IMG/VR virus record: IMGVR_UViG_3300035181_001149 | Coordinates: 1 to 49,899 of that record | Origin: a virus | Strand: one strand, 5' to 3' | DNA: 49,899 nt | In this document: positions 2,630 to 43,967 of the stretch, in pieces | How positions within the stretch are numbered: the stretch's first letter is position 1 | How the letters are laid out: each line of letters begins with the position of its first letter | Made by a program: the position numbers and the translations under genes | Notes under the pieces: generated by a model | What the model was told of the DNA's origin: nothing | What the model saw: only the letters and a program-made list of their open reading frames with translations | Database searches by the model: none

Positions 2630-3031
2630 TTATTTAGTTAATAATTGAAACGTAATTAATAATTGAGCGTAATGTAGTAATTGGTCGAATCCAACACTTA
2701 CAAAGAAGTTGTGTATATCTCCCTTGTTATATAGGTATGTATTTAGTCGGCTTGTTAAGTAATCAGTAATCCAATGGCATACGAATGTTATTGTTGGAAA
2801 TAAAAAAACAAAACAAACACCTTTAGTTAATGTATGATAAAAAATAATATAAGCTCCGTAAAAACAAGAAAAAGCAAACCAAACTAACGTATAAGTTAAT
2901 ACGTGCATAGTAAGGTAATAATTAGACTTACTCTTATTTGTAGCTTGTTCATGTGTTTGTAATACAAAGTCAGCAAACCAATGTATCAAAATAATACTAA
3001 ATAGTATGTATATGTTTATTTCTGTTTTCAT
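2630..3031 (-). CDS. DUF3307 family membrane protein
   Basis: 133 residues with four likely membrane helices. It carries the DUF3307 pattern: IHWFADFVLQTHEQATNKSK at the N-terminus, then HWITDYLTSRLNTYLY, then HNFFVSVGFDQLLHYAQLL. This family is common in phages and plasmids of Bacteroidetes and its role is unknown. The conserved polar residues (His, Asp, Gln) inside membrane segments suggest an enzyme or a metal-binding site in the membrane; that is inference. Confidence 0.88.
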   Translation of the reverse strand: MKTEINIYILFSIILIHWFADFVLQTHEQATNKSKSNYYLTMHVLTYTLVWFAFSCFYGAYIIFYHTLTKGVCFVFLFPTITFVCHWITDYLTSRLNTYLYNKGDIHNFFVSVGFDQLLHYAQLLITFQLLTK

Positions 3032-3084: not shown

Positions 3085-4050
3085 TTATTTTAATGTATTT
3101 AATTTATTCCATTTCCTCTCTAAAAAATCAACATTATGTATGTAGTTCTTTAGTATTTTTAAATCTTTTGTTGTGCATATTTCTATTTTTGAAGTTACTT
3201 TCTTGGTTGTTTTCACTTTACTACTTATATTATAAAACTCTTTTAATTTATCTGATATTAATTGTAATGTTTTCAACCAATTAATATGAATTTCTACTCT
3301 TAAATTTAACCAACTTGATTTTTTGTCTTTACCACTATGTGTTTCCCATATACAACCATCACCATCTATAAGTCCTATAAAAAAAGGTAATAATAAATCT
3401 TTTGTTAAAAAAATATTCAAATCAGGTGGTGTGTATGTTTTAGGGCTATTAATATTTAATATTGATAACCATTTTTCTCCAAATTTTTTATCTTGTATTC
3501 TTAATATACATGAGTGAAACTCTTTTTTAGTGTAACTGTTTATGTATTTTTTTTCATAAATTTTACATCCTAAAATATCAGATATTTTTTTAAGGTGTGA
3601 TTTATCTTTTATGCTTAATCCAATAATAACCTCCCCTTTATTAGTTATATGACCATCAGCCATTATAAATCCCCACCAATATGCACTCCTTTCATTTAAT
3701 GTATCAAGAAATTTTAATGAGCCAATTCTTTTTCTTTGAGCTTCTGACTTGACACCTAACTCAATTGCTTTTTTAGTTAACATGTTATAACTTCTATTTG
3801 GAATAGCAGCTAACAAATCTTTCATTGTAGAATTTTTCCAATGAAATTTAAGTAGCTCTATTTCTTTGTCAGTCCATCTATTCCAATTAGAAGAATGCAG
3901 TCCAAGTTTTTTTGCTTTATCACCTATGGAGTTTAGTGTTCTACCCTTAATGTATTTTGCACATTCATTAGATTCTCCTGTTGGATAATATTTCTTTAAA
4001 AAACAAATATCTTCTTCTGACCACTTTTTTTTATTATTAGTCCCTTTCAT
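3085..4050 (-). CDS. Free-standing LAGLIDADG homing endonuclease with N-terminal DNA-binding repeats
   Basis: 321 residues. Two LAGLIDADG helices are visible: WWGFIMADG at 125-133 and FFIGLIDGDG at 223-232, each ending in the catalytic acidic residue, so one chain holds both half-sites. Two SANT/Myb-like or HTH repeats precede them (WSEEDICFLKKYYP at 10-23, WTDKEIELLKFHW at 59-71). It lies between phage genes and has its own -7 box (4059-4066), as mobile endonuclease genes often do. Not inside a visible intron; probably spreads by cutting relatives that lack it. Confidence 0.93.
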   Translation of the reverse strand: MKGTNNKKKWSEEDICFLKKYYPTGESNECAKYIKGRTLNSIGDKAKKLGLHSSNWNRWTDKEIELLKFHWKNSTMKDLLAAIPNRSYNMLTKKAIELGVKSEAQRKRIGSLKFLDTLNERSAYWWGFIMADGHITNKGEVIIGLSIKDKSHLKKISDILGCKIYEKKYINSYTKKEFHSCILRIQDKKFGEKWLSILNINSPKTYTPPDLNIFLTKDLLLPFFIGLIDGDGCIWETHSGKDKKSSWLNLRVEIHINWLKTLQLISDKLKEFYNISSKVKTTKKVTSKIEICTTKDLKILKNYIHNVDFLERKWNKLNTLK

Positions 4051-4098: not shown

Positions 4099-5622
4099 TT
4101 AAGCATTTATCCTTTCACGTATCTCAGAAAGTTTATGGTCAATTAAAAGTTTTCCATCTTTGAAAACAGGTTTAAGTTCACAGTTCATAATTTCATCCCA
4201 AGTAGCTTGGTCTTTTAAATAAAAATCACCATTTCCATCTTTAAAAACAGCAGTTAAACCTTTAGCTGATTTTTTCTCTCCACTATCAGTAATAGGGTCT
4301 TTAAATATTTCTCTACCAATTCCATCAACTTCACAAAATGTAGATTTAACTGCAATTCCGAGCGAATCCCTGCTTTTTACGTTCATCGTGTAAGAACCCA
4401 CCCCCATAACTATATTAGTAGAAGCGAATCCTTTAGTCTTTAATCTTTGGCAAATTTCTTCTGCTCTTTCTAAGGTTATCGCATCCCCGTATATAGCCCC
4501 AATATGGTTATCTAATACTTTGTAACCTTGTTCGTTTACTATACCGCCAAATACATCCCAAAGTAGTTCTATAACACCTTTGTGTTCGGATTCAGAAATG
4601 TATTTAGGTTTACCTACAACTCCATTTTCCCATTCATAATATCCACCAAAAATACCATCTTCATTGTCAACAAATCCCTTACCACAAATAATATCACAAG
4701 GATTACCGCTATCAGGACGTATAACTAATTTACCTTCACGAGCTAATATTTTATCTTTTAAAGTAGGTAGGTACTCTGTACATACTTTCCAAAGGTCAAA
4801 GCTGTCGCTAACAACAGATATTATTCCTGTTGGGAACTGATTTAATAATCTTGCGAAAGCAACAATCTCATCTTCTTTACCATAAGATGTCATAACGCTG
4901 TGTTCTGATGCAGGCACACTACTACCAACTAATTCTTTTTCAATGTTAGCGTTATAATATTCCTCTAACATCAAAACGGCAGGTATGGTATCTGTTCCTG
5001 TGAATGATAATAGCCATCCCGCTTGATTTAAAGATGTTTCGATAGAGCTTCTACCTCGCATACTAAAATCATGTCCTTGCCATTGAACAAAATCTTTTGT
5101 ACCAGTAGTTTCAATAGCGTGTTTATCTAATACATCTCTAAATTGTTTCCCAATAGTTGCATTAGTAGTTAAATCCCAAATAACTGTACTCATTTGAGTT
5201 TCTAAGAAATTAACTAACCAAGCGTGTTCAGGGTGTGTATTGTAAATTACATAATACGGAACTCTTGCTTTTATCAAAGAACCTTCGGGTAATGCAAGTA
5301 TCTCCAATGGCATGTAACCTAATTGATGTAATTTTTCAATATGAGTGGTATCAATATCACAAAAACTAAAGTTTTTATGAAACCTTTTATATTCTTTTAA
5401 TACATCTTCTAATGGAATATTAAAGAATAATTCATTCCATTGTTTTATCAGATATTCTTTTAAATAATATTGTAATCCAAACCATACTGATTTTTCTAAT
5501 CCTTCCATTCTCTTGTAGCTTCTTGGTGTCATATTAGAAACTAATTTGGTCATACCTTCAGGATACATTTTAAAGTGAAACTGTTTGTAGCTATCTGATA
5601 GCAATATTGGTAAAATTTTCAT
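4099..5622 (-). CDS. NAMPT-family enzyme: nicotinamide phosphoribosyltransferase or nicotinamide ADP-ribose transferase (Namat)
   Basis: 507 residues, near the 491 of human NAMPT, and colinear with it. Active-site residues are kept: Tyr12 in DSYK (human Tyr18), Phe186 and Arg189 in FSMRG (Phe193, Arg196), Asp211 in FTGTD (Asp219), His241 in ASEHS (His247), Arg302 and Asp304 in IRPDSG (Arg311, Asp313), Asp380 in YGD (Asp354), Arg418 in SRDS (Arg392). NAMPT joins nicotinamide to PRPP giving NMN; the phage homologue Namat joins nicotinamide to ADP-ribose pyrophosphate giving NAD+ directly. The PRPP-synthetase-like gene at 6801-7721 in the same run suggests the two act together. Motifs alone do not tell NAMPT from Namat. 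No NMN adenylyltransferase is visible nearby, which mildly favours the Namat route. Confidence 0.93.
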   Translation of the reverse strand: MKILPILLSDSYKQFHFKMYPEGMTKLVSNMTPRSYKRMEGLEKSVWFGLQYYLKEYLIKQWNELFFNIPLEDVLKEYKRFHKNFSFCDIDTTHIEKLHQLGYMPLEILALPEGSLIKARVPYYVIYNTHPEHAWLVNFLETQMSTVIWDLTTNATIGKQFRDVLDKHAIETTGTKDFVQWQGHDFSMRGRSSIETSLNQAGWLLSFTGTDTIPAVLMLEEYYNANIEKELVGSSVPASEHSVMTSYGKEDEIVAFARLLNQFPTGIISVVSDSFDLWKVCTEYLPTLKDKILAREGKLVIRPDSGNPCDIICGKGFVDNEDGIFGGYYEWENGVVGKPKYISESEHKGVIELLWDVFGGIVNEQGYKVLDNHIGAIYGDAITLERAEEICQRLKTKGFASTNIVMGVGSYTMNVKSRDSLGIAVKSTFCEVDGIGREIFKDPITDSGEKKSAKGLTAVFKDGNGDFYLKDQATWDEIMNCELKPVFKDGKLLIDHKLSEIRERINA

Positions 5623-5649
5623 ATTTTTATTTTTTTAGTTGGTTTACAA

Positions 5650-6138
5650 TTATTTATTATTTAATATTTGTTCTAATTTAAAACGGACGTATTTTACTAA
5701 GTCTTTGTACTCATAAATCAACGGTATATCATATCGGTTGCATACCACTTGAATATTACCGAATCGGTAAAACTCTTTAGGGCAGCAAACAATTAGTTTA
5801 CCTGATTTAGCATATAAACCCAATTCAAGTAACGATATAGGTGATTTACTATCGGGTAGGATATTCATAACAACGTAGTCAGCTTTCTCCATAGCATCAA
5901 GCTCCCAATTTACCTGCTGATAAAAATCAGGTGTTTCAAATGTTTGCTTAATGTTGCTATCCCATTTATCCCTTCTTGGATTAAATATATTGAGTGAAAA
6001 AAGGTCTTTTACTTGTTTTGTAAAATTAGTTTGCCAGTCATCACTTTCCCCCATATCAATAGTGCCTGCAAGGAATATTGATAAGTTACCGTTTGGGGTA
6101 ATCATTTGTGGTGGTTTAAATTCAATTGTTTTTTTCAT
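5650..6138 (-). CDS. Nucleoside 2-deoxyribosyltransferase-like protein
   Basis: 162 residues from the chosen ATG at 6138; this start has the leader AACTAAAAAAACAATAC, whereas the upstream ATG at 6171 would overlap the preceding gene. Motifs fit the deoxyribosyltransferase/N-glycosidase fold: IFLAGTIDMG at 21-30, NPRRDKWD at 53-60, WELDAMEKADYVV at 78-90, and LLELGLYA at 103-110 with Glu105 in the place of the family's catalytic glutamate. Members move or cut the N-glycosidic bond of nucleosides or nucleotides. Position between the NAMPT-like and PRPP-synthetase-like genes suggests a role in nucleotide or NAD+ metabolite turnover. Confidence 0.85.
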   Translation of the reverse strand: MKKTIEFKPPQMITPNGNLSIFLAGTIDMGESDDWQTNFTKQVKDLFSLNIFNPRRDKWDSNIKQTFETPDFYQQVNWELDAMEKADYVVMNILPDSKSPISLLELGLYAKSGKLIVCCPKEFYRFGNIQVVCNRYDIPLIYEYKDLVKYVRFKLEQILNNK

Positions 6139-6160
6139 GTATTGTTTTTTTAGTTTTTTA

Positions 6161-6607
6161 TTATGCTGCATCAGTAGGGGTTAACTTACTATTGTTGTAT
6201 GCTCTAACCCTGTATATCACATCTTCAAGTATATCTAATGTAACTGGTAAGGCACAATTTCTATCATCCAAGTAGATATTCGCGTATGGTTTGCTACCTT
6301 CGTTTCCGTATGGTAGTTCAATAGGGTTTTTATTGATTGTGTCAATATTTATACCAACTGATTCACAGTATCTCTTAATATCTTCGTATCTGTCTTCGCG
6401 GCAAGCTGTATGCACAACAACAAAGCATCCTGTTATCTTGGCTTCTTTTATCAGTTTGATAGTTCTATCAATATCATCTTTATTATCTAAAGTGTGATAA
6501 GGACTTATAGTGCTATCAAAATCAGTTGACAGGATTATTTTACCGTATTCAGACCACTCTTTAAATAATCTGTCGGCATACTTTTGTAATCTTTCGTCTT
6601 TTAACAT
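6161..6607 (-). CDS. HAD-superfamily hydrolase-like protein
   Basis: 148 residues. HAD motif I is STDFDST at 27-33 (nucleophile Asp29, acid/base Asp31), motif II is VVHT ending at Thr67, and motif IV is YLDD at 112-115. Likely a small phosphatase, perhaps on a nucleotide, since it lies in the NAD+-salvage-like block. Substrate not predictable. A second, separate HAD protein is at 41436-41870. Confidence 0.85.
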   Translation of the reverse strand: MLKDERLQKYADRLFKEWSEYGKIILSTDFDSTISPYHTLDNKDDIDRTIKLIKEAKITGCFVVVHTACREDRYEDIKRYCESVGINIDTINKNPIELPYGNEGSKPYANIYLDDRNCALPVTLDILEDVIYRVRAYNNSKLTPTDAA

Positions 6608-6629
6608 TGGTTTTTGTTTTTAAATTATA

Positions 6630-6800
6630 TTATTCGTCCAATACTGTTTTTACTCTAATAGGTAGTTCTTCATATTTTTTTCTTTGTAAAAAAAATTGTT
6701 GTGTTTTACCAACACCTAAATGAATCATAGCAAAATTCATTCTTTCATTACTATTCATTGAATCCCATTTTTGTTTACCTTTTAATTTTTCTGTTGACAT
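6630..6800 (-). CDS. Unknown 56-aa protein in the NAD+-salvage-like block
   Basis: ATG at 6800 directly abuts the stop of the PRPP-synthetase-like gene (6801-6803), and the stop is TAA at 6630-6632. Starts MSTEKLKGKQKWDSMNSNER and ends KTVLDE. Charged, mostly helical, no cysteine cluster. The zero-base junction and matching base composition support a real, translationally linked gene. Function unknown. Confidence 0.65.
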   Translation of the reverse strand: MSTEKLKGKQKWDSMNSNERMNFAMIHLGVGKTQQFFLQRKKYEELPIRVKTVLDE

Positions 6801-7721
6801 TTAAAATACATTTAACTGTTTAATAAATGGTTTAGTGTCAGGCATAAAATCCTTATAACTGTTGGTTGTGTAAATAGCATCGAAGTATTGCATTAATTCT
6901 CCTATTCCCTTACTGAAAATTCCGTGCGTAACTATAAGATATATCTTGTTTTTTAAAACATCATTTTCACAAGATACATTATAGTCGTATATTTTATTTT
7001 TAATTTCCTTTGCAATATTAATGAACGATGCCCCACCATCAAGCAAATCATCAATTATGATAAAATTCTTATTTTCATAATCAGATATATTTATAGGAAC
7101 AACTGTTTTATTTAGTTTTCCATCAACACCTCTGTGTTTACTACAAATAACAACTTCATTAGTGCAGTTTATTTGTTCAGCTACTTTGTATATTTTTTTT
7201 AAAGAGCCTCCATCAACACTCACTAAAACCATTGTGTCTAAAAAAGCATTTGTGTCAGAAATAAAACTTTCAACTAACTCTCTGTTATCTATTTTTTTGA
7301 AATTATTTAAACACGCTTCAAGAACATCGCTGTGAGCATCCATTACCGTTACACTTTCAAAATTAAGATTGTTTATAATTGGGCATATCACACCTTTCAA
7401 ATAGTTGTTAGAGCCTTCTTCAAATTTTCTGTCGCTTCTACTCCCTAAAAAATATGGTGTGTACAGGTGTATTTCCTTAACGCCTAAACCTCTTAATGAA
7501 ACTGTTGCAGCTACTATTAATTCCAAATCCATGAAATTATTTAGCCTTGATTTTATTTCAACAAATTTAACATCCCAATCTGTTTTTGTTCCGTCATTAA
7601 GAACGTATTTAAGGCTATCAGGAATTATCTTTACTTGGCTCTGACCATCAGGGAACTTACTTATTACATACTTTATATCTGATTTTTCAGGATATGCTAA
7701 ATTTAAAACTTTCATATTCAT
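6801..7721 (-). CDS. PRPP-synthetase family enzyme: ribose-phosphate pyrophosphokinase or ADPR-PP synthetase (Adps)
   Basis: 306 residues, the family's usual length. Motifs in order: FPDGQ at 23-27, GSRSDR at 93-98 (ATP region), VMDAHS at 127-131, VSVDGG at 168-172, SKHR at 194-197 (flexible loop), IIIDDLLDGGASF at 221-233 (PRPP loop; the usual Thr of DTGGT is Gly here) and THGIF at 265-269. Prs makes PRPP from ribose 5-phosphate and ATP; the phage version Adps puts pyrophosphate on ADP-ribose. With the NAMPT-like gene at 4099-5622 this forms the two-enzyme set of phage NAD+ reconstitution pathway 1. Prs versus Adps cannot be settled from motifs. Confidence 0.9.
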   Translation of the reverse strand: MNMKVLNLAYPEKSDIKYVISKFPDGQSQVKIIPDSLKYVLNDGTKTDWDVKFVEIKSRLNNFMDLELIVAATVSLRGLGVKEIHLYTPYFLGSRSDRKFEEGSNNYLKGVICPIINNLNFESVTVMDAHSDVLEACLNNFKKIDNRELVESFISDTNAFLDTMVLVSVDGGSLKKIYKVAEQINCTNEVVICSKHRGVDGKLNKTVVPINISDYENKNFIIIDDLLDGGASFINIAKEIKNKIYDYNVSCENDVLKNKIYLIVTHGIFSKGIGELMQYFDAIYTTNSYKDFMPDTKPFIKQLNVF

Positions 7722-7772
7722 TTTTTTTATTAATTTATTTATTACTCAGGAAATAATATTTCACTATTTTAA

Positions 7773-8480
7773 TTACTCAATAGTATTACTTTTTTTAAGT
7801 CTAATAAACTGGCGAACAGACATCATCCAATCTTTCATTTGTTTTCCGTGTGATTTCCATCCAAGTTTTTCGTAATGGTTATATAATGTTTTTATTTCAT
7901 CTGTTTCTGTATCAGAACAAATTGTATCGGGTTTCAATAACAAATAAAATTCAACAAACTCATCAAGTGTAGGTTTTTCAAAAGCTACATTAACCCTTCC
8001 ATTGTTAACTTGTAGGTAAGTACGAACAGCTTTTTTCCAATCTATAATTGGTTTACCCTTTGTTTTCCAATTTGCTTTTTCGTAGTAATTATATAACCAT
8101 GTTGTATCCGCCTCATCTGAAGTAGGTATTATTATTTTATAATACTCAGTAAATTCTTCAAATGTTGGTTTATCTACATTAACTGACTCAATTGTTTTTT
8201 TACCTAACTCAGTAAATACGGGAACACCTGTAACATGTAGTGGTGTACTATTTGTATTGCCTGTTGTTCCTGTTGAACTAACTGGAGGAAAAAACACTTT
8301 TTTAGCTAATAACTCATTTAACTCTCTTTGCATTTGTTTAATAACGGCTTCGGTTGCCTCTGCATGTAGAGCGGTTACAATATTCTTCTGTTCTTTATAA
8401 GAAGATTTACGCGCTTTTTCAATTTCAATATTTCCTTCTAAAAATAGGATACGAATATCCTCTGCTAATGATGTTGCCAT
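7773..8480 (-). CDS. Protein with two tandem replication-organizer-like C-terminal repeats
   Basis: 235 residues from ATG at 8480 (starts MATSLAEDI; leader GATAAAAAAACT). The upstream ATG at 8543 would overlap the next gene. N-terminal half is helical and coiled-coil-like. Two related repeats follow: KPTFEEFTEYYKII with LYNYYEKANWKTKGKPIIDW, and KPTLDEFVEFYLLL with LYNHYEKLGWKSHGKQMKDW. Single copies of this 'W..kgkpi.dWk..vr' unit are found at the ends of phage replication organizers and DnaD-like proteins, so DNA binding or replisome assembly is plausible. Confidence 0.72.
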   Translation of the reverse strand: MATSLAEDIRILFLEGNIEIEKARKSSYKEQKNIVTALHAEATEAVIKQMQRELNELLAKKVFFPPVSSTGTTGNTNSTPLHVTGVPVFTELGKKTIESVNVDKPTFEEFTEYYKIIIPTSDEADTTWLYNYYEKANWKTKGKPIIDWKKAVRTYLQVNNGRVNVAFEKPTLDEFVEFYLLLKPDTICSDTETDEIKTLYNHYEKLGWKSHGKQMKDWMMSVRQFIRLKKSNTIE

Positions 8481-8493
8481 AGTTTTTTTATCC

Positions 8494-8787
8494 TTATTTA
8501 TTTTTATTATTGTTATTACCCTGTATGTAATTAAGTCTGTCAATTTCAGCAGCTATAAATGCGCCCGCTATCGTTAATTTTTCAACCTCACTCTTTGCGT
8601 TAATTTTTTTAAAAACACTTTGATTCCAATCGGAAGGGAAGTCTTCAACTAAACCAGTTATTAATGATTGTGCCGCCCATTTTAATTGACCCATATCATT
8701 AAACTCAACATCTCTATCAATACTTATTCCATGCTTTTCAATTTGCTCCGCTCGCTCTAAGGCGATTAGTTCTAATCCTGTTTTCAT
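8494..8787 (-). CDS. Conserved small phage protein (ERAEQIEKHG family)
   Basis: 97 residues. The start MKTGLELIALERAEQIEKHG followed by GQLKWAAQSLI and AGAFIAAEIDRL matches a widespread family of phage proteins that often lie near nucleotide-metabolism genes, some compared with MazG-like all-helical folds. No catalytic acidic cluster can be assigned here. Overlaps the alternative start of the gene downstream. Confidence 0.75.
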   Translation of the reverse strand: MKTGLELIALERAEQIEKHGISIDRDVEFNDMGQLKWAAQSLITGLVEDFPSDWNQSVFKKINAKSEVEKLTIAGAFIAAEIDRLNYIQGNNNNKNK

Positions 8788-8819
8788 ATTTTTATATTTT
8801 TGTACAATGTTTAATATAC

Positions 8820-8978
8820 TTATATATTTAAAAGTTTAATTAATTTTTTTCTTCCAAACCAAACAATACTCATACAGATGTATGTTGATAAAATTACACC
8901 ACCACCACCAAGTAATAGGTAAGACAAAATATTTAGTGAAATCCAAATGCCTGTTATAATTAAAACTCCTGTTTTCAT
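8820..8978 (-). CDS. Small membrane protein, 52 aa
   Basis: ATG at 8978 with the leader AACTAAAAAA, stop TAA at 8820-8822. One or two hydrophobic helices (VLIITGIWISLNILSYLLL, then GVILSTYICMSIVWF) and a basic tail. Too short for many gene finders, but leader, spacing and hydrophobic pattern fit a real gene. Function unknown. Confidence 0.6.
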   Translation of the reverse strand: MKTGVLIITGIWISLNILSYLLLGGGGVILSTYICMSIVWFGRKKLIKLLNI

Positions 8979-8982
8979 TTTT

Positions 8983-9285
8983 TTAGTTTATTTTTTGGTT
9001 AGCATCTAATACTAATTCGTATAAGTTAAATATGTCCATTTCAAAAACTTTTATAGCTTTTTGTTTGTAACAAGATTCAAATTTGTATGTACCCATAAAA
9101 GACATTTCATTTTCTTCATCTGAATATTTTTGTATTTTATATCCATGATAAATAATATTAGATTGTTCTTTACTGTATCCCATATAGTCAAACAAATCTT
9201 GTGTTGCTTTTTCTTGTGATGAGGAACAGATAATTGGTCTGTTACCACATTTTACATCTGTTATTACATAAGTCAAATTATTCAT
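8983..9285 (-). CDS. Unknown 100-aa protein
   Basis: Soluble; begins MNNLTYVITDVKCGNRPIIC and contains a few scattered cysteines. Its start codon lies one base before the end of the MazG-like gene, so the two are likely co-translated. No family recognised. Confidence 0.7.
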   Translation of the reverse strand: MNNLTYVITDVKCGNRPIICSSSQEKATQDLFDYMGYSKEQSNIIYHGYKIQKYSDEENEMSFMGTYKFESCYKQKAIKVFEMDIFNLYELVLDANQKIN

Positions 9286-9286
9286 T

Positions 9287-9718
9287 TTAGTTTGTTAGTG
9301 TTTCGCTGTTTATAGTTCCGTGAGAAATATCTGTTTGTGATTTACGTAAAACTTTTTGATATGATAGTTCGGCATAATCTTCAATAGTTTTACCCCTGTT
9401 TAATGCAAGTGCATTTAAGTAGTACAATACATCCGCTAATTCGTTATCAAAAAGTTCTTCATTTTCTATAACTATTTCGTGTGGTTTTGCATTACCATTT
9501 CGGATAGCTTTTTTAAGCCTATCAACTTGTTCTGCTTTTTCAATAGCACCATCTAAAGGAAGTGGTGTTATAATACCGTTATGCCTTATTTTGCATTCAT
9601 TTAACACCTCGCCTGCTTCTCCAAATAATCCAAGTAAAGCAACGTTGTTTATACTTCCTTTTATGTAACCTACTTTTTGCTGAATTTCAGTTAGTTTTTG
9701 AATTGATGTTTTTTCCAT
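9287..9718 (-). CDS. MazG-like nucleoside triphosphate pyrophosphohydrolase
   Basis: 143 residues. The metal-binding pair of the all-alpha NTP pyrophosphatase family is present: EAGE at 34-37 and ELADVLYYL at 93-101 (E93, D96). Between them is a basic helix. Such enzymes hydrolyse (d)NTPs to monophosphates; phage versions may clean nucleotide pools or lower (p)ppGpp and similar alarm signals. It follows the DUF5131 gene in the leftward run. Confidence 0.88.
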   Translation of the reverse strand: MEKTSIQKLTEIQQKVGYIKGSINNVALLGLFGEAGEVLNECKIRHNGIITPLPLDGAIEKAEQVDRLKKAIRNGNAKPHEIVIENEELFDNELADVLYYLNALALNRGKTIEDYAELSYQKVLRKSQTDISHGTINSETLTN

Positions 9719-9734
9719 GATTATTTTATTTAGT

Positions 9735-10607
9735 TTATATAGGAAATTCTCTGATTTTCAACCATTCAAGGTGATGAGGATACTCCTCAAAATTTTCACC
9801 CTTTACATTAGGTAAATTATATTGCTTACCTAAAATACTACCAAGCTGCTTGAAAAATATTTTAGGCATACCAACTATACTTCGACTGTATTCAAATTTA
9901 GATATGATGCCTTTAACGTGTTCTAATTGCATCTTACGTATCTTGGTTATATGACCCGATTCACCACCAATAATAATCCAAGATAATGGTGCTTGATAGA
10001 CTTTATTACCATCTACTATTCTTGTATCATCAGTTACATTAGTATTGAAATTAACAGCACCTACAAGAGGCTCACAACTAACAAACATAACCTTAACAAA
10101 ATTATTAGAACAGAAGTCTTGTATGTGTGGGAACATAGTATCATAATCTTTTTGGGTAACAATGGTTGTACCTAACCAAATATTTCTTGGGAAAGATGGT
10201 GTTTGTAAATCAGTTGATGTAAGCCAACGTTCAGGGAAAAACTTTTTGAAGTTCTCAGGTCGCTTAGTAAGTAATAACCAATCAAGATTAGGTGTTTCTT
10301 CAATTATTTTCCAAATACGTTCTCTTGGCTCATTTAGTTCATCTCTGTCTTCCATTATATCAGACAGCGAGCTACAAAAAACACGATAACGAATACCTAA
10401 TTCACCTGCTTTTTTATTCCATTTTATAGGGTTATTCCAAACAGTTTCAGAAGTAATATGCCTTGTGCCATTGTTTCCCCATACAGCAAACTTATATCTA
10501 TCATTAAACGCTTCGGCATAACAAAACTTACAACCATCAGTTACTTTGTGGCAACCAATCCAAAAATTTTGCGAATGGTCGCACCACGAAATTTTACTAT
10601 TTTCCAT
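9735..10607 (-). CDS. DUF5131 (phage Gp37/Gp68) family protein
   Basis: 290 residues. Starts with the family's signature: WIGCHKV..GCKFCYAE with Cys19, Cys26 and Cys29, then DWLLLTKRPENF, NIWLGTTIV, FVSCEPLVG, IIGGESG and FFKQLGS. The three cysteines and barrel-like strands resemble a radical-SAM fold, so an iron-sulphur or metal site is likely, but the reaction is unknown. Common in phages. Preceded by a leftward promoter-like box at 10639-10646. Confidence 0.92.
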   Translation of the reverse strand: MENSKISWCDHSQNFWIGCHKVTDGCKFCYAEAFNDRYKFAVWGNNGTRHITSETVWNNPIKWNKKAGELGIRYRVFCSSLSDIMEDRDELNEPRERIWKIIEETPNLDWLLLTKRPENFKKFFPERWLTSTDLQTPSFPRNIWLGTTIVTQKDYDTMFPHIQDFCSNNFVKVMFVSCEPLVGAVNFNTNVTDDTRIVDGNKVYQAPLSWIIIGGESGHITKIRKMQLEHVKGIISKFEYSRSIVGMPKIFFKQLGSILGKQYNLPNVKGENFEEYPHHLEWLKIREFPI

Positions 10608-10621
10608 ATACTATTTTGATT

Positions 10622-10646
10622 TGACCGTTCAAGAGTTTCAAAATTA
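10622..10646 (-). promoter_or_regulatory. Leftward promoter: -7 box plus CGGTCA element
   Basis: On the minus strand TAATTTTG (10639-10646) matches TAnnTTTG, and CGGTCA (10627-10622) follows after 11 bases. The same pair occurs at 14828, 21256, 36936 and 45863. Drives the DUF5131-MazG run. Confidence 0.55.
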
Positions 10647-10699
10647 CTATTTTATATTCAGTTGTAAAAAAATATTAGCATAAAAAGTTATTAACCGAA

Positions 10700-11161
10700 T
10701 TACTTATTATGCGAAAATAAAACAGAAACAATTATACCAAATACGCGACCATTCAAATCGGATAGTGGATGTACCAACTGAATTTGTCTGTACCACTCTA
10801 ATAGCTGTTCTTTTGGCATTACAGCAACAGGAAACAACTTATTCGTGTATTCTTCTACCTGATTGTAATCAACGGTGGAAAGATTAACGCTATGTGTTCT
10901 AAAACCTGCCTTAACACCCTTCCAGTTGTTTTTTGATAACAACCTGTTTTGAATATTCAGTATATCTTTTATACTAAAATCTTTAAATCCTCCTAAGTCG
11001 GTTAAAATATCTTGTGTCTCAGTTATTCTGTTTTCATTCTCACCTTCTTTTTTTATATGAGGTTGATTAATTCTTTTAGCATCTTCAAATGGATTTCCAG
11101 TCCAATAAAATTTAGGTTTAAAATCACCTGTGATTACAGGGTTTTCAATTATGTTGTTCAT
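10700..11161 (-). CDS. Fic-fold protein with altered active-site motif
   Basis: 153 residues. The Fic pattern is seen in GVKAGFRTHSVNL at 82-94 and, after a helix, HPLSDLNGRVFG at 131-142. The canonical motif is HPFx(D/E)GN(G/K)R; here His131, Asp135, Asn137, Gly138 and Arg139 are kept but the first glycine (anion-hole side) is Leu. Fic proteins transfer AMP or other groups from nucleotides to proteins. The protein could be an active variant, a Doc-like kinase or a dead copy. No antitoxin-like neighbour with the inhibitory helix motif is evident. Confidence 0.72.
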   Translation of the reverse strand: MNNIIENPVITGDFKPKFYWTGNPFEDAKRINQPHIKKEGENENRITETQDILTDLGGFKDFSIKDILNIQNRLLSKNNWKGVKAGFRTHSVNLSTVDYNQVEEYTNKLFPVAVMPKEQLLEWYRQIQLVHPLSDLNGRVFGIIVSVLFSHNK

Positions 11162-16553: not shown

Positions 16554-17504
16554 TTATAAAAGGTTTTGTTCCGTTTCATCTATTCGCTTTTTCGCTTTGT
16601 TAAAGTATTTTTCGTCTTTCTCAATCCCAATAAAATTCCTATTCAGTTTCTTACAAGCAACTCCGCAAGTTCCACTTCCCATTGTATTGTCAAGCACCGT
16701 TTCATTTTCGTTTGAGTATGTGCTGACAATAAATTCCATCAACGGTAATGGCTTTTGTGTCGGGTACAGTCCATTTTCTCTATCGTATCTCAAAATGCTT
16801 TTCGGATAACCTGTTTTTGTTTGCTTGTAGTTATCTCTTTTGCTTTCACTTGATAAATGCCCTAAACTTCCTGCCTTACCTTTATTTGAGCAAATAATAT
16901 CAGTATCATTCAAATCCAAATTGTATGTAATCCTTTTTACTTTGCTCAAAATTTCTTCATATTTATTTTCAATTCCAAATAGGTTGCAAATTTTATTCCA
17001 TTGCTCTGCTGTCGGTAATTGTGAGCCATTCAGTTTGTTCGTTACCCAACCTGTCATTCCTCCTGTTCTTGATAGTTCCAATTTTGACACATCAATTTTT
17101 TTCAAGTTCAGTCGCTTCATATTTTCAATCATAATATCAGCAAATTCCATATCGGGAGTTTCATTACAAAACACAGATATAGTTTCGTGTATCTTCAATG
17201 GTTGGTAGTTCACTAATTGAAAGTTCCCTGCATTGTTCTTCTCCCAAATCCAATCGTATTTATACCAACCCAAATTACTTGTCCGTAGCAATGATGAAAA
17301 CGGTTCACTACCAAATAATACAATCACTCCCTTGTCCTTTATTATTCGTTTGTATTGCTCCCAAAGTTTGTCAAATGGAATTATCGTGTCCCAAGCACAA
17401 GCAGTCGTTCCGTAAGGCAAATCACAGCATATAAAGTCAATACTCTTTTCGGGTATCTCATTCATCAATTCCAAAGTATCACCTAAATATAAATCCTGTT
17501 TCAT
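16554..17504 (-). CDS. Beta-class DNA (N4-cytosine or N6-adenine) methyltransferase
   Basis: 316 residues. Catalytic motif IV is DLPYG at 28-32 and the AdoMet-binding motif I is DNTMGSGT at 272-279 near the C-terminus, with GLYPTQKPLPLMEFI between; this order defines the beta class. A variable middle (about 120-235) would hold the target-recognition part, larger than in the second methyltransferase at 29865-30701. No cognate restriction gene lies nearby, so it is a solitary methylase, likely protecting the element or phage DNA from restriction. It is inside the 16214-17667 element and is less AT-rich than its neighbours. Confidence 0.92.
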   Translation of the reverse strand: MKQDLYLGDTLELMNEIPEKSIDFICCDLPYGTTACAWDTIIPFDKLWEQYKRIIKDKGVIVLFGSEPFSSLLRTSNLGWYKYDWIWEKNNAGNFQLVNYQPLKIHETISVFCNETPDMEFADIMIENMKRLNLKKIDVSKLELSRTGGMTGWVTNKLNGSQLPTAEQWNKICNLFGIENKYEEILSKVKRITYNLDLNDTDIICSNKGKAGSLGHLSSESKRDNYKQTKTGYPKSILRYDRENGLYPTQKPLPLMEFIVSTYSNENETVLDNTMGSGTCGVACKKLNRNFIGIEKDEKYFNKAKKRIDETEQNLL

Positions 17505-29864: not shown

Positions 29865-30701
29865 TTAAAAAATACTTATTTGGTTGTTGTTGTTTTCTTC
29901 ATCACTCTTTAATTCAGAAAATCCTTGTGTTAATAAATCAATTCTTCTTTGTATTACATTAAACCATTTTTTACTTTTTTCCATCATTATGTAATTACGC
30001 TTTGTGTTAATGGCGGCTATACCAATACTTCCGCTTCCTGCTGTGTTATCCAATACTAAATCACCTTCATTGCTATATGTTTTTATTAAATATTCACATA
30101 ATAATACTGGTTTTTGAGTTGGGTGCAATGCAATTTTCTGTTTATCTGTTTTGTATTTTAATACGCTACGTGGGTATCTTTCTGTACTATCGTAATCTGT
30201 TACAGATTCAGCTATTTCTTTGTTATACAAATAATCCTCCTTTAAATTACGTCTATCAATACAAGTAGCACGGTTTTTAGCAGAAGAAACCTTACGTATA
30301 TGACCGTCTGTCATTTGAGGATTATAGGTTGGTAAATTTTTATAAAAAACAAGTATGTTTTCATGTGCCTTCATAGGCATCTTTTTTGCATTAAGATGTC
30401 CTGTTGCCTGAGTTTTTTCCCATATCCATTCATATTTTAATAAAGGTAAATTACTTGCTCCAAGAACCTTGTCAAATGGTGTTTGTGCAAATAAAAGTAT
30501 AGGGCAATTAGGTTTTATTATTCTTTCGTATTCAAGCCACATTTTAGGTAAATCAATAATAGAATCCCAAGCACATTTTGTAGTCCCAAAAGGAGGGTCT
30601 GAAAAAATTAAATCTATACTATTATCAGGTATTAACTTCATTAAGTCAAGACAATCTCCTAAATATGTTTTATTTATTTCTATTTTATTTTTCAGACTCA
30701 T
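29865..30701 (-). CDS. Second beta-class DNA methyltransferase
   Basis: 278 residues. Catalytic DPPFG at 35-39, AdoMet loop DNTAGSGS at 218-225 and HPTQKPVLLCEYLIKTYS before it; order IV then I is the beta class. Shares layout and phrases (CAWD.I, YEWIWEK, PTQKP, DNT.GSG) with the methyltransferase at 16554-17504 but is shorter in the middle, so target specificity likely differs. Unlike that gene it is embedded in the phage run: start overlaps the stop of 30698-30880 by four bases. Solitary; DNA protection or regulation are likely roles. Confidence 0.93.
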   Translation of the reverse strand: MSLKNKIEINKTYLGDCLDLMKLIPDNSIDLIFSDPPFGTTKCAWDSIIDLPKMWLEYERIIKPNCPILLFAQTPFDKVLGASNLPLLKYEWIWEKTQATGHLNAKKMPMKAHENILVFYKNLPTYNPQMTDGHIRKVSSAKNRATCIDRRNLKEDYLYNKEIAESVTDYDSTERYPRSVLKYKTDKQKIALHPTQKPVLLCEYLIKTYSNEGDLVLDNTAGSGSIGIAAINTKRNYIMMEKSKKWFNVIQRRIDLLTQGFSELKSDEENNNNQISIF

Positions 30702-42941: not shown

Positions 42942-43967
42942 TTACTCCTCATGTTTTAAAAGAAACTCAGGTGATATAACCTTTAATATCACTCTACCTA
43001 TAATGTCGTTTATTTCAACTAATGGTACTATAACAATGCCTTCGCGTTTTGTATCGTAAAGCATAGATTTACCGTTTGATAATGCAACCAAATCATTAAT
43101 GTCGTTGCTTAAAACAAGTTTATCGTTTATTACAGGCACTCTTTCAAGTTTCAGGTCATTAGTTACACGAACAAAGGCATCGTAATCTAAATACCTGTGC
43201 TTGTCAATATTAAATATGTTATACAGGAATACTTTTTTACCCTTTATTTTATACTTGTTTTTCTTAATACCCTCTCCGACTATTTCACCCTGCATGGATA
43301 TATTCTTAGGTATATTAACTGACTGGTTAGAGCGTAGTATGCTCTCAATATTTAGTTTTCTTGCCATTTGCCAATGAATAGAATCTGATGACTCTAAATA
43401 ATCAACCTCTTTTGAACAAACACCGAATACATCATTTTTTAAGTAGAAAGTAATACTTTCGCCATCGAGCTTTTCCGAAGCAACACAAATTATTCCTTGA
43501 TATTTATCTAAAACTGGCTGCATTGTCTGTACACGATAAATATCCGATTTAGGTATATCTGATGGCATATATCCTTTTGCCGCCCCTAATAGCTCGTTAG
43601 GTAGCTTATCTTCGTGCTTGGTAACACGCATAGCAGTAGTAACATCCTGACCGATAATCATATCTTCGGGTAATAAACCAAAGTGTTCTACAATATCAAT
43701 AGGAAAGCAGATGCCTTGTGATACCTGACCACGCATCCTAACAGTACGGATACGCATTGTACCACTTGTTATTTTTTTAACTCCTTCAAATAATTCAATA
43801 TCAGGAAGAAGTGAGTCTATTTCACAGTAAACTACTGCGCTACCAACATTGAACTCACCTTTTCTTACTACTACCTGCCACCCCAAAATAGTGGCAACTT
43901 CAATAGCCTGTGCATCTTTGATTGGATTTAAAGCTGTAATTTTTTGTATGCTTGCTAAATTTCTCAT
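42942..43967 (-). CDS. RNA ligase, DRB0094 (Rnl5) family
   Basis: 341 residues. N-terminal OB-like part (MRNLASIQKITALNPIKDAQ, GWQVVVRKGEFNVGSAVVYC) precedes the ligase domain. Motif I is EKLDGES with nucleotidyl-lysine Lys166, motif IV is QGEIVGEGI at 226-234, then EGIVI and motif V VILKVISPEFLLK at the C-terminus. This order, OB part first, is the DRB0094 type. Joins RNA ends with ATP. In phages it may repair tRNAs cut by host anticodon nucleases. Confidence 0.93.
   Translation of the reverse strand: MRNLASIQKITALNPIKDAQAIEVATILGWQVVVRKGEFNVGSAVVYCEIDSLLPDIELFEGVKKITSGTMRIRTVRMRGQVSQGICFPIDIVEHFGLLPEDMIIGQDVTTAMRVTKHEDKLPNELLGAAKGYMPSDIPKSDIYRVQTMQPVLDKYQGIICVASEKLDGESITFYLKNDVFGVCSKEVDYLESSDSIHWQMARKLNIESILRSNQSVNIPKNISMQGEIVGEGIKKNKYKIKGKKVFLYNIFNIDKHRYLDYDAFVRVTNDLKLERVPVINDKLVLSNDINDLVALSNGKSMLYDTKREGIVIVPLVEINDIIGRVILKVISPEFLLKHEE

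What the first reader, a model, noticed from the sequence alone, without database searches (positions are those of the whole stretch)
4099..7721. Phage NAD+ reconstitution (NARP1-like) operon with three extra genes
A NAMPT/Namat-family gene and a PRPP-synthetase/Adps-family gene lie in one leftward run, both with intact active-site motifs. Known work on phages describes such pairs rebuilding NAD+ from ADP-ribose and nicotinamide to defeat NAD+-depleting immunity (Thoeris, DSR, Sir2-type systems). Here a deoxyribosyltransferase-like enzyme, a HAD phosphatase and a 56-aa protein are inserted between the two, and no NMN adenylyltransferase is seen. The extra genes could extend the pathway, for example by handling other NADase products.
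Basis: partly seen in the sequence, partly recalled or inferred. Interest (0 to 1): 0.8.

Follow-up and report, generated by a model that had tools for sequence, protein, structure and literature searches.

The report
Phage NAD+ rebuilding operon, four enzymes
This virus of bacteria carries a compact operon that probably rebuilds the essential molecule NAD+ after the host's defences break it down, and it includes two further enzymes, a phosphatase and a sugar-bond-cutting enzyme, that turn up again and again beside the same pair in other phages and in bacterial chromosomes, which suggests an extended version of a known counter-defence pathway.

Summary
Five co-directional, tightly packed minus-strand genes (4099-7721) encode, in transcription order, Adps-like, a 56-aa ORF, a HAD phosphatase, a PF15891 deoxyribosyltransferase-like (NDT-like) enzyme and Namat-like. 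The Namat groups with proven phage Namat, not with Nampt/NARP2 enzymes, even with the specificity columns masked; it keeps the catalytic set and most of the ADPR-PP selectivity clamp but has Val at usually aromatic position 396. The Adps separates from housekeeping Prs. A NARP1 core is likely.

The two larger extra genes are not accidental. Scans seeded with the HAD alone find Namat within 6 kb in 33 of 39 non-redundant viral loci, and Adps plus Namat in 41 of 51 bacterial loci; NDT-seeded scans find Namat in 28 of 61. Ten further loci, three bacterial, share the four-gene order. Bacterial versions often adjoin NrtR, the ADPR-responsive repressor; others carry ADP-ribosylglycohydrolase, Macro, KptA or NADAR between the same pair. 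Best reading: NARP1 core plus exchangeable enzymes feeding ADP-ribose into it. HAD and NDT substrates are inferred, not shown. The 56-aa ORF is an orphan.

The parts
6801..7721 (-). Adps-like ADP-ribose pyrophosphokinase (PRPP-synthetase fold), first gene of the run
   Evidence: PHROG 619 E=1.3e-54; below the Prs cut-off of TIGR01251; groups with Namat-paired Adps, split from E. coli and archaeal Prs at SH-aLRT 98, sister L144 (99); motifs FPDGQ, SRSDR, HSDV, K.R, DDLLDGGASF
6630..6800 (-). 56-aa ORF, start codon directly after the Adps stop codon; orphan
   Evidence: no Pfam, PHROG or NCBIfam match; no homologue among 138 loci
6161..6607 (-). C0-type HAD phosphatase, recurrent NARP1 companion
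   Evidence: D29, D31, T33, T67, K106, D114, D115 invariant in 30 relatives; AF2 pLDDT 89.6, best fold 2obb/BT0820 Z 10.5, then T4 Pnkp phosphatase Z 6.7; Adps/Namat neighbours
5650..6171 (-). PF15891 nucleoside 2-deoxyribosyltransferase-like enzyme (likely true start about 6138), recurrent NARP1 companion
   Evidence: PF15891 113.9 bits; E116 and NPRRD/W..E invariant in 45 relatives; AF2 pLDDT 90; 4mcj Z 21.6, DNPH1/RCL about 12, MilB 11.8, TIR domains about 10
4099..5622 (-). Namat-like nicotinamide ADP-ribose transferase, last gene of the run
   Evidence: Namat clade, SH-aLRT 100 against Nampt/NARP2 rows with clamp columns masked; catalytic set complete, R39 (=R40) kept, SCH motif GSYTMNVKSRD

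Best explanation
A phage NAD+ reconstitution operon of the NARP1 kind, extended by two ADP-ribose-releasing enzymes. Adps converts ADP-ribose plus ATP to ADPR-PP; Namat joins ADPR-PP to nicotinamide to give NAD+ (both steps inferred from homology to characterised enzymes). The HAD phosphatase and the NDT-like glycosidase widen the input: the HAD most likely removes a phosphate from a phosphorylated ADP-ribose (first candidate ADPR-1''-phosphate, second 2'-phospho-ADPR from NADP+), and the NDT-like enzyme most likely hydrolyses a glycosidic bond of an ADP-ribose conjugate or NAD-derived signal. Both would return plain ADPR to Adps. Shown here: gene identities, clade membership, intact catalytic residues, and recurrent co-directional linkage in phages and bacterial chromosomes, often beside the ADPR-responsive regulator NrtR. 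Inferred: every substrate and the counter-defence role.
For: Namat and Adps clades. Clamp motif splits Namat-paired from NARP2/lone Nampt rows. HAD-seeded viral scan: Namat within 6 kb in 33 of 39 and Adps in 32 of 39 non-redundant loci with HAD score >=150. HAD-seeded genome scan: Adps plus Namat in 41 of 51 bacterial loci with HAD score >=130, often with overlapping frames. NDT-seeded viral scan: Namat in 28 of 61. On contigs >=100 kb: 17 of 29 (NDT) and 21 of 26 (HAD) against about 2.3 expected even if every contig held one Namat placed at random. All four genes together in 31 non-redundant loci, always on one strand; window order ADPS-HAD-NDT-NAMAT in 7 viral and 3 bacterial loci. NrtR adjoins most bacterial copies, and other ADPR-releasing genes (ADP-ribosylglycohydrolase, KptA, Macro, NADAR) lie in the interval between Adps and Namat in Flavobacteriaceae. 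Precedent: RyDEP, a glycosidase beside NARP1 in a mycobacteriophage, turns 2'/3'cADPR into ADPR for NAD+ synthesis (PMC13232231).
Against: HAD and NDT are accessory, not obligatory: in a Namat-seeded Flavobacteriaceae sample only 1 of 20 had the HAD and 4 of 20 the NDT-like gene, and the proven SPbetaL1 operon and a Felixounavirus operon lack both. NDT-like relatives also occur without Namat nearby (22 of 22 and about half). The window Namat has Val for the usual aromatic at position 396 and SRD for TRD. No substrate of HAD or NDT is known; folds do not tell substrates. Namat can also make NMN from PRPP in vitro (PMC12774641). Related sequences are not independent, so counts overstate the evidence.
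Confidence: 0.58

Rival explanations
1. The NARP1 core is real, but the HAD and NDT-like genes serve nucleotide clean-up (for example DNPH1-like hydrolysis of unwanted dNMPs and dephosphorylation), and cluster only because phages group nucleotide-metabolism genes.
For: The closest characterised folds of the NDT-like protein are (deoxy)nucleoside-monophosphate glycosidases DNPH1 and MilB. MazG-like and DUF5131 genes lie upstream in the same run. NDT-like genes also sit beside dCMP deaminase or PhoH in phages without NARP1 nearby.
Against: The linkage also holds in bacterial chromosomes with overlapping frames and NrtR. HAD relatives are nearly confined to NARP1 loci. In related bacterial operons the interval between Adps and Namat holds enzymes of ADP-ribose metabolism.
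Confidence: 0.2
2. Ordinary salvage: a PRPP synthetase and a nicotinamide phosphoribosyltransferase make NMN, and the host adenylyltransferase completes NAD+.
For: Fold and annotation as Prs and Nampt; the window Namat lacks one clamp aromatic; Namat keeps PRPP activity in vitro (PMC12774641).
Against: Adps and Namat both fall outside Prs and Nampt groups; clamp R40, F392 (as Tyr), R399 and D400 are kept, whereas Nampt and NARP2 rows have GG in the motif.
Confidence: 0.12
3. The HAD is a 2'-phosphatase acting on NADP+ or 2'-phospho-ADPR rather than on ADPR-1''-phosphate, so that the NADP pool is also recycled.
For: C0 HAD fold related to T4 Pnkp 3'-phosphatase, which acts on ribose phosphates; it would supply ADPR from NADP+ cleavage.
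Against: No direct evidence; another C0 HAD among the structure matches, phage AfhF (9iqw), is described as a sugar 1,5-diphosphate phosphatase, which fits an anomeric phosphate equally well.
Confidence: 0.2
4. The window lineage has shifted donor specificity: Adps (SPD to SVD, GRTF to GASF) and Namat (Y396V, T398S) changed together and use a donor other than ADPR-PP.
For: Both proteins deviate at usually conserved positions.
Against: Other Adps share GATF or AASF and other Namat vary at position 396 (H, M, A); single clamp mutants lose only 1.3- to 1.7-fold (PMC12774641).
Confidence: 0.08

Closest known systems
NARP1 (Adps plus Namat), phage SPbetaL1, Bas63 and bacterial Paenibacillus foliorum (PMC12774641)
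   Same: Both enzymes, close together and co-directional; Namat catalytic core and most of the selectivity clamp; the Namat group in the tree.
   Different: Two further enzymes between the pair; one clamp aromatic replaced by Val. PMC12774641 does not mention a phosphatase, a deoxyribosyltransferase or Bacteroidota.
RyDEP plus NARP1 of mycobacteriophage DyoEdafos (PMC13232231)
   Same: An extra glycosidase beside NARP1 that feeds ADPR to it; the closest functional precedent.
   Different: RyDEP is a RyR-domain (PF02026) protein with an H/D dyad; the window has an unrelated DNPH1/TIR-like Rossmannoid enzyme plus a phosphatase.
NARP2 / NadV plus NadM or NadR phages (Kabachok, BONAISHI; PMC9503650)
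   Same: Nicotinamide-based NAD+ synthesis carried by a phage.
   Different: Those pair Nampt with an NMN adenylyltransferase and have GG[GE] in the motif; no adenylyltransferase is found in the window.
ADP-ribose-processing enzymes surveyed in viruses and hosts: Macro, ADP-ribosylglycohydrolase, KptA, NADAR, NrtR (PMC9503650)
   Same: Several of these families flank or interrupt the bacterial Adps/Namat pair.
   Different: In the passages of that survey read here, phage NadV partners are NadM and NadR (plus NADAR nearby) and viral DrHyd proteins are only ADP-ribosyl cyclases; PF15891 and this HAD are not mentioned there.

Membership tests
NARP1 | Adps homologue distinct from housekeeping Prs | tested here: met
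   Tree (split SH-aLRT 98, only two Prs references); TIGR01251 below cut-off.
NARP1 | Namat homologue on the Namat side of the Nampt/Namat tree | tested here: met
   SH-aLRT 100 with clamp columns masked; long outgroup branches.
NARP1 | SCH motif GSX.X.X.TRD with aromatics at positions 3 and 7, and a stacking residue in the SCL | tested here: inconclusive
   Window GSYTMNVKSRD: position 3 Tyr, position 7 Val, SRD for TRD; SCL Arg kept. The paper states a usual consensus, and other Adps-paired rows also vary at position 7.
NARP1 | Adps and Namat encoded together | tested here: met
   Same run, 1.2 kb apart, 3 ORFs between.
NARP1 | ADPR plus ATP to ADPR-PP, then NAD+ with nicotinamide | not testable with these tools
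   Needs enzymes.
NARP1 | Overcomes NAD+-depleting defence | not testable with these tools
   Needs infection assays.
NARP2 (Nampt plus NMN adenylyltransferase) | NMN adenylyltransferase encoded nearby | tested here: not met
   No motif in six frames nor among scanned proteins; the record is a fragment.
HAD phosphatases | Motifs DxDxT, S/T, K, DD | tested here: met
   Invariant in 30 relatives; fold.
BT0820-type HAD (NF046079) | Curated cut-off 165 bits | tested here: not met
   18.9 bits; similar fold only.
PF15891 Nuc_deoxyri_tr2 | Gathering score 30 bits | tested here: met
   113.9 bits.
RyDEP (PF02026) | RyR domain | tested here: not met
   No PF02026 match among ten proteins from 4099 to 11161.

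The most novel reading that the evidence does not exclude
HAD and NDT-like proteins are enzymes that turn immune signals or toxin products derived from NAD+ (ADPR-1''-phosphate, 2'-phospho-ADPR, N-linked or cyclic ADPR such as Thoeris messengers) into plain ADPR, which Adps and Namat then rebuild into NAD+. One operon would both erase the alarm signal and repair the damage, and bacteria keep the same kit, often beside an ADPR-responsive regulator, as protection or salvage against their own NADases.
Probability: 0.3. Interest if true: 0.82.

Novelty: new variant of a known kind. Interest (0 to 1): 0.62.

Why it matters
NARP1 is known as a two-enzyme shortcut from ADPR to NAD+. If it has a set of exchangeable partner enzymes, shared between phages and Bacteroidota or Paenibacillaceae chromosomes and often next to an ADPR-responsive repressor, then NARP1 is part of a wider ADP-ribose salvage system, and each partner enzyme points to a NAD+-derived molecule that the host or a rival makes. 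That gives a direct way to look for unknown immune signals or toxin products: assay the partner enzymes on ADPR derivatives.

Tried and rejected
The 56-aa ORF as a conserved component: no homologue in any locus. NDT-like gene as NARP1-specific: rejected, since the first NDT-seeded scan found 0 of 22 loci with Namat (scored) and the deeper scan 28 of 61; it is a recurrent but not exclusive partner. HAD as an obligatory partner: rejected (1 of 20 in Namat-seeded Flavobacteriaceae). Housekeeping Prs/Nampt: rejected by trees. NMN adenylyltransferase or Nudix in the window: none found. HAD as a BT0820 orthologue: far below cut-off. Literature: the original NARP1 paper is not held; a search for papers joining NAMPT, Prs, deoxyribosyltransferase, phage and NAD gave none; no paper on AfhF was found. 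Earlier comparative work on NrtR regulons and NADAR neighbourhoods that I recall but could not read may already list some bacterial neighbours.
Full report
Observation. The window is a linear 49,899-base IMG/VR virus record, about 30% GC, with no tRNA. Genes of the finding lie on the minus strand in a tight run: Adps-like 7721-6801, a 56-aa ORF 6800-6630, HAD 6607-6161, NDT-like 6171-5650 and Namat-like 5622-4099, with gaps of 0, 22, -11 and 27 bp. The starts are preceded by A/T runs and no clear Shine-Dalgarno sequence, which would fit a Bacteroidota host (inference). Homologues suggest that the NDT-like protein starts at the internal ATG near 6138.

Namat identity. The closest solved chains are 9w5w and 9w5x. 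The sequence read from that chain is 100% identical to a protein of Bacillus phage SPbetaL1, and the residues named in PMC12774641 fall where that paper puts them. In a tree of 91 rows with both clamp regions masked, the window joins 86 other rows, including SPbetaL1 Namat, against mouse NAMPT, NARP2 phages Kabachok and BONAISHI, and a lone Straboviridae Nampt (SH-aLRT 100; long outgroup branches are a caution). Nearest is L011 (74% over 461 columns), then L009 and L010. The motif that PMC12774641 gives for ADPR-PP specificity separates the groups: nearly all Namat rows carry GS[FY] (one GSC, and PDB 9ke8 GAQ), while NARP2 and lone Nampt rows carry GG[GE]. The window has GSYTMNVKSRD and keeps the stacking Arg of the loop, but position 7 is Val and TRD reads SRD. 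Single clamp mutants lose only 1.3- to 1.7-fold in that paper, so this weakens the case without overturning it.

Adps identity. The protein scores 71.7 bits against the Prs model with a cut-off of 113. It groups with Namat-paired Adps from phages and bacteria, apart from E. coli and an archaeal Prs (SH-aLRT 98, only two references). Closest are L144 (Adps-HAD-Namat, 71% over 282 columns), L017 and L024. Catalytic K..R, HSDV and the DDxxDGG loop are kept; SPD is SVD.

HAD. All HAD catalytic residues are invariant in 30 relatives. The AF2 model (pLDDT 89.6) is a small cap-less HAD: BT0820 Z 10.5, T4 Pnkp phosphatase Z 6.7, phage D-arabinose 1,5-diphosphate phosphatase AfhF Z 6.2 with rmsd 8.5. 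In viral contigs, scans seeded with the HAD alone gave, among loci scoring at least 150, Namat within 6 kb in 33 of 39 and Adps in 32 of 39 non-redundant loci. It occurs in complete crAss-like genomes DAC15, cr111_1 and cr126_1, where it overlaps both Namat and Adps. In bacteria, 41 of 51 relatives scoring at least 130 lie with both genes, in Flavobacteriaceae, Saprospiraceae, Cytophagales, Chitinophagaceae, Cohnella and Paenibacillus. Paenibacillus is the genus whose P. foliorum Adps and Namat were shown to be active (PMC12774641).

NDT-like enzyme. PF15891; AF2 pLDDT 90; nearest fold 4mcj (Z 21.6), then YtoQ (13.5), DNPH1/RCL (about 12), MilB (11.8), deoxyribosyltransferases and TIR domains (about 10). 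E116, in the position expected for the catalytic glutamate of this superfamily (by motif, not by superposed coordinates), is invariant. A first narrow scan found no Namat beside 22 relatives; a wider one found Namat near 28 of 61. On contigs of at least 100 kb, 17 of 29 NDT loci and 21 of 26 HAD loci have a Namat within about 6 kb, where random placement of one Namat per contig would give 2.3. This test does not correct for shared ancestry. The varied gene orders argue for repeated assembly: 31 non-redundant loci hold all four genes, always on one strand; ten (seven viral, three bacterial) have the window's order ADPS-HAD-NDT-NAMAT.

Chromosomal context. Most bacterial copies adjoin a Nudix-HTH protein matching NrtR_WHD and, best among NCBIfam, the ADPR-responsive repressor model, though below its strict cut-off. 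Paenibacillus psychroresistens adds PnuC and a NadR-like gene. Flanks such as ClpP, uroporphyrinogen decarboxylase or sugar transporters look chromosomal rather than prophage (read from sequence, not scanned). A Namat-seeded draw from the Flavobacterium family found Namat in 24 of 299 genomes. Of 20 widened loci, 14 have Adps, 11 NrtR, 4 NDT and 1 HAD within about 5.5 kb. Between Adps and Namat lie, in various loci, ADP-ribosylglycohydrolase, KptA, Macro, SLOG, NADAR or metallophosphoesterase genes; a sirtuin lies beside a Namat whose Adps was not in reach. HAD and NDT are thus exchangeable accessories of an ADP-ribose-centred operon.

Mechanism. Shown: identities, clades, catalytic residues, linkage. 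Inferred from characterised relatives: ADPR to ADPR-PP to NAD+. Inferred from context: HAD and NDT return ADPR from phosphorylated or glycosidically linked derivatives. PMC13232231 gives the precedent, RyDEP with NARP1. PMC9503650 names ADPR-1''-phosphate as a toxic NAD+-derived product made by RES enzymes, which makes it a plausible HAD substrate; that is a hypothesis. The orphan 56-aa ORF gets no role.

Novelty. In the held literature that I could search, nobody reports the HAD or PF15891 gene with NARP1: PMC12774641 mentions no phosphatase, deoxyribosyltransferase or Bacteroidota, and the passages read in the 2022 survey give NadM and NadR as NadV's partners. The original NARP1 paper was not readable here, so this is not a complete check. 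I file it as a new variant of a known kind.

Noticed in passing
window 3085-4050 (minus): LAGLIDADG-type homing-endonuclease-like ORF (by reading its sequence) directly downstream of Namat; relatives lie near NARP1 in L005, L007, L010 and L085, and HNH genes sit between Adps and Namat in phages LinBro and Weasels2.
   Followed up: partly
L135 7077-9796, L224 2661-5083, L263 3082-5505, L019 8257-9897: Namat (or Adps in L019) appears as two separated halves, as if an intron or mobile element interrupted it.
   Followed up: no
window 2630-3031 (minus): DUF3307 membrane protein; relatives recur near Namat in 11 of 88 loci.
   Followed up: no
window 8494-9718 (minus): A weak MazG-like ORF (9287-9718) and a 97-aa ORF with weak PHROG matches just upstream of Adps.
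   Followed up: no
window 42942-43967 (minus): RNA ligase with PHA02142 OB-fold domain; RNA-ligase-like, SPFH-like and metallophosphoesterase-like clusters (read from sequence) also recur near Namat in about 20 of 88 loci.
   Followed up: no
window 16554-17504 and 29865-30701 (minus): Two separate N6/N4 DNA methyltransferase genes of the same PHROG.
   Followed up: no
L142 5887-8200 (Persicobacter sp. JZB09 632-kb plasmid): Adjacent Adps and Namat on a large Bacteroidota plasmid, without HAD or NDT.
   Followed up: partly
L095 6113-8770 (Citrobacter phage Tr1): An 885-aa annotated Nampt, far longer than usual, next to Adps.
   Followed up: no
L067 3806-4321: Weak Macro-domain match; the cluster it belongs to recurs in 15 of 88 Namat loci.
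   Followed up: no
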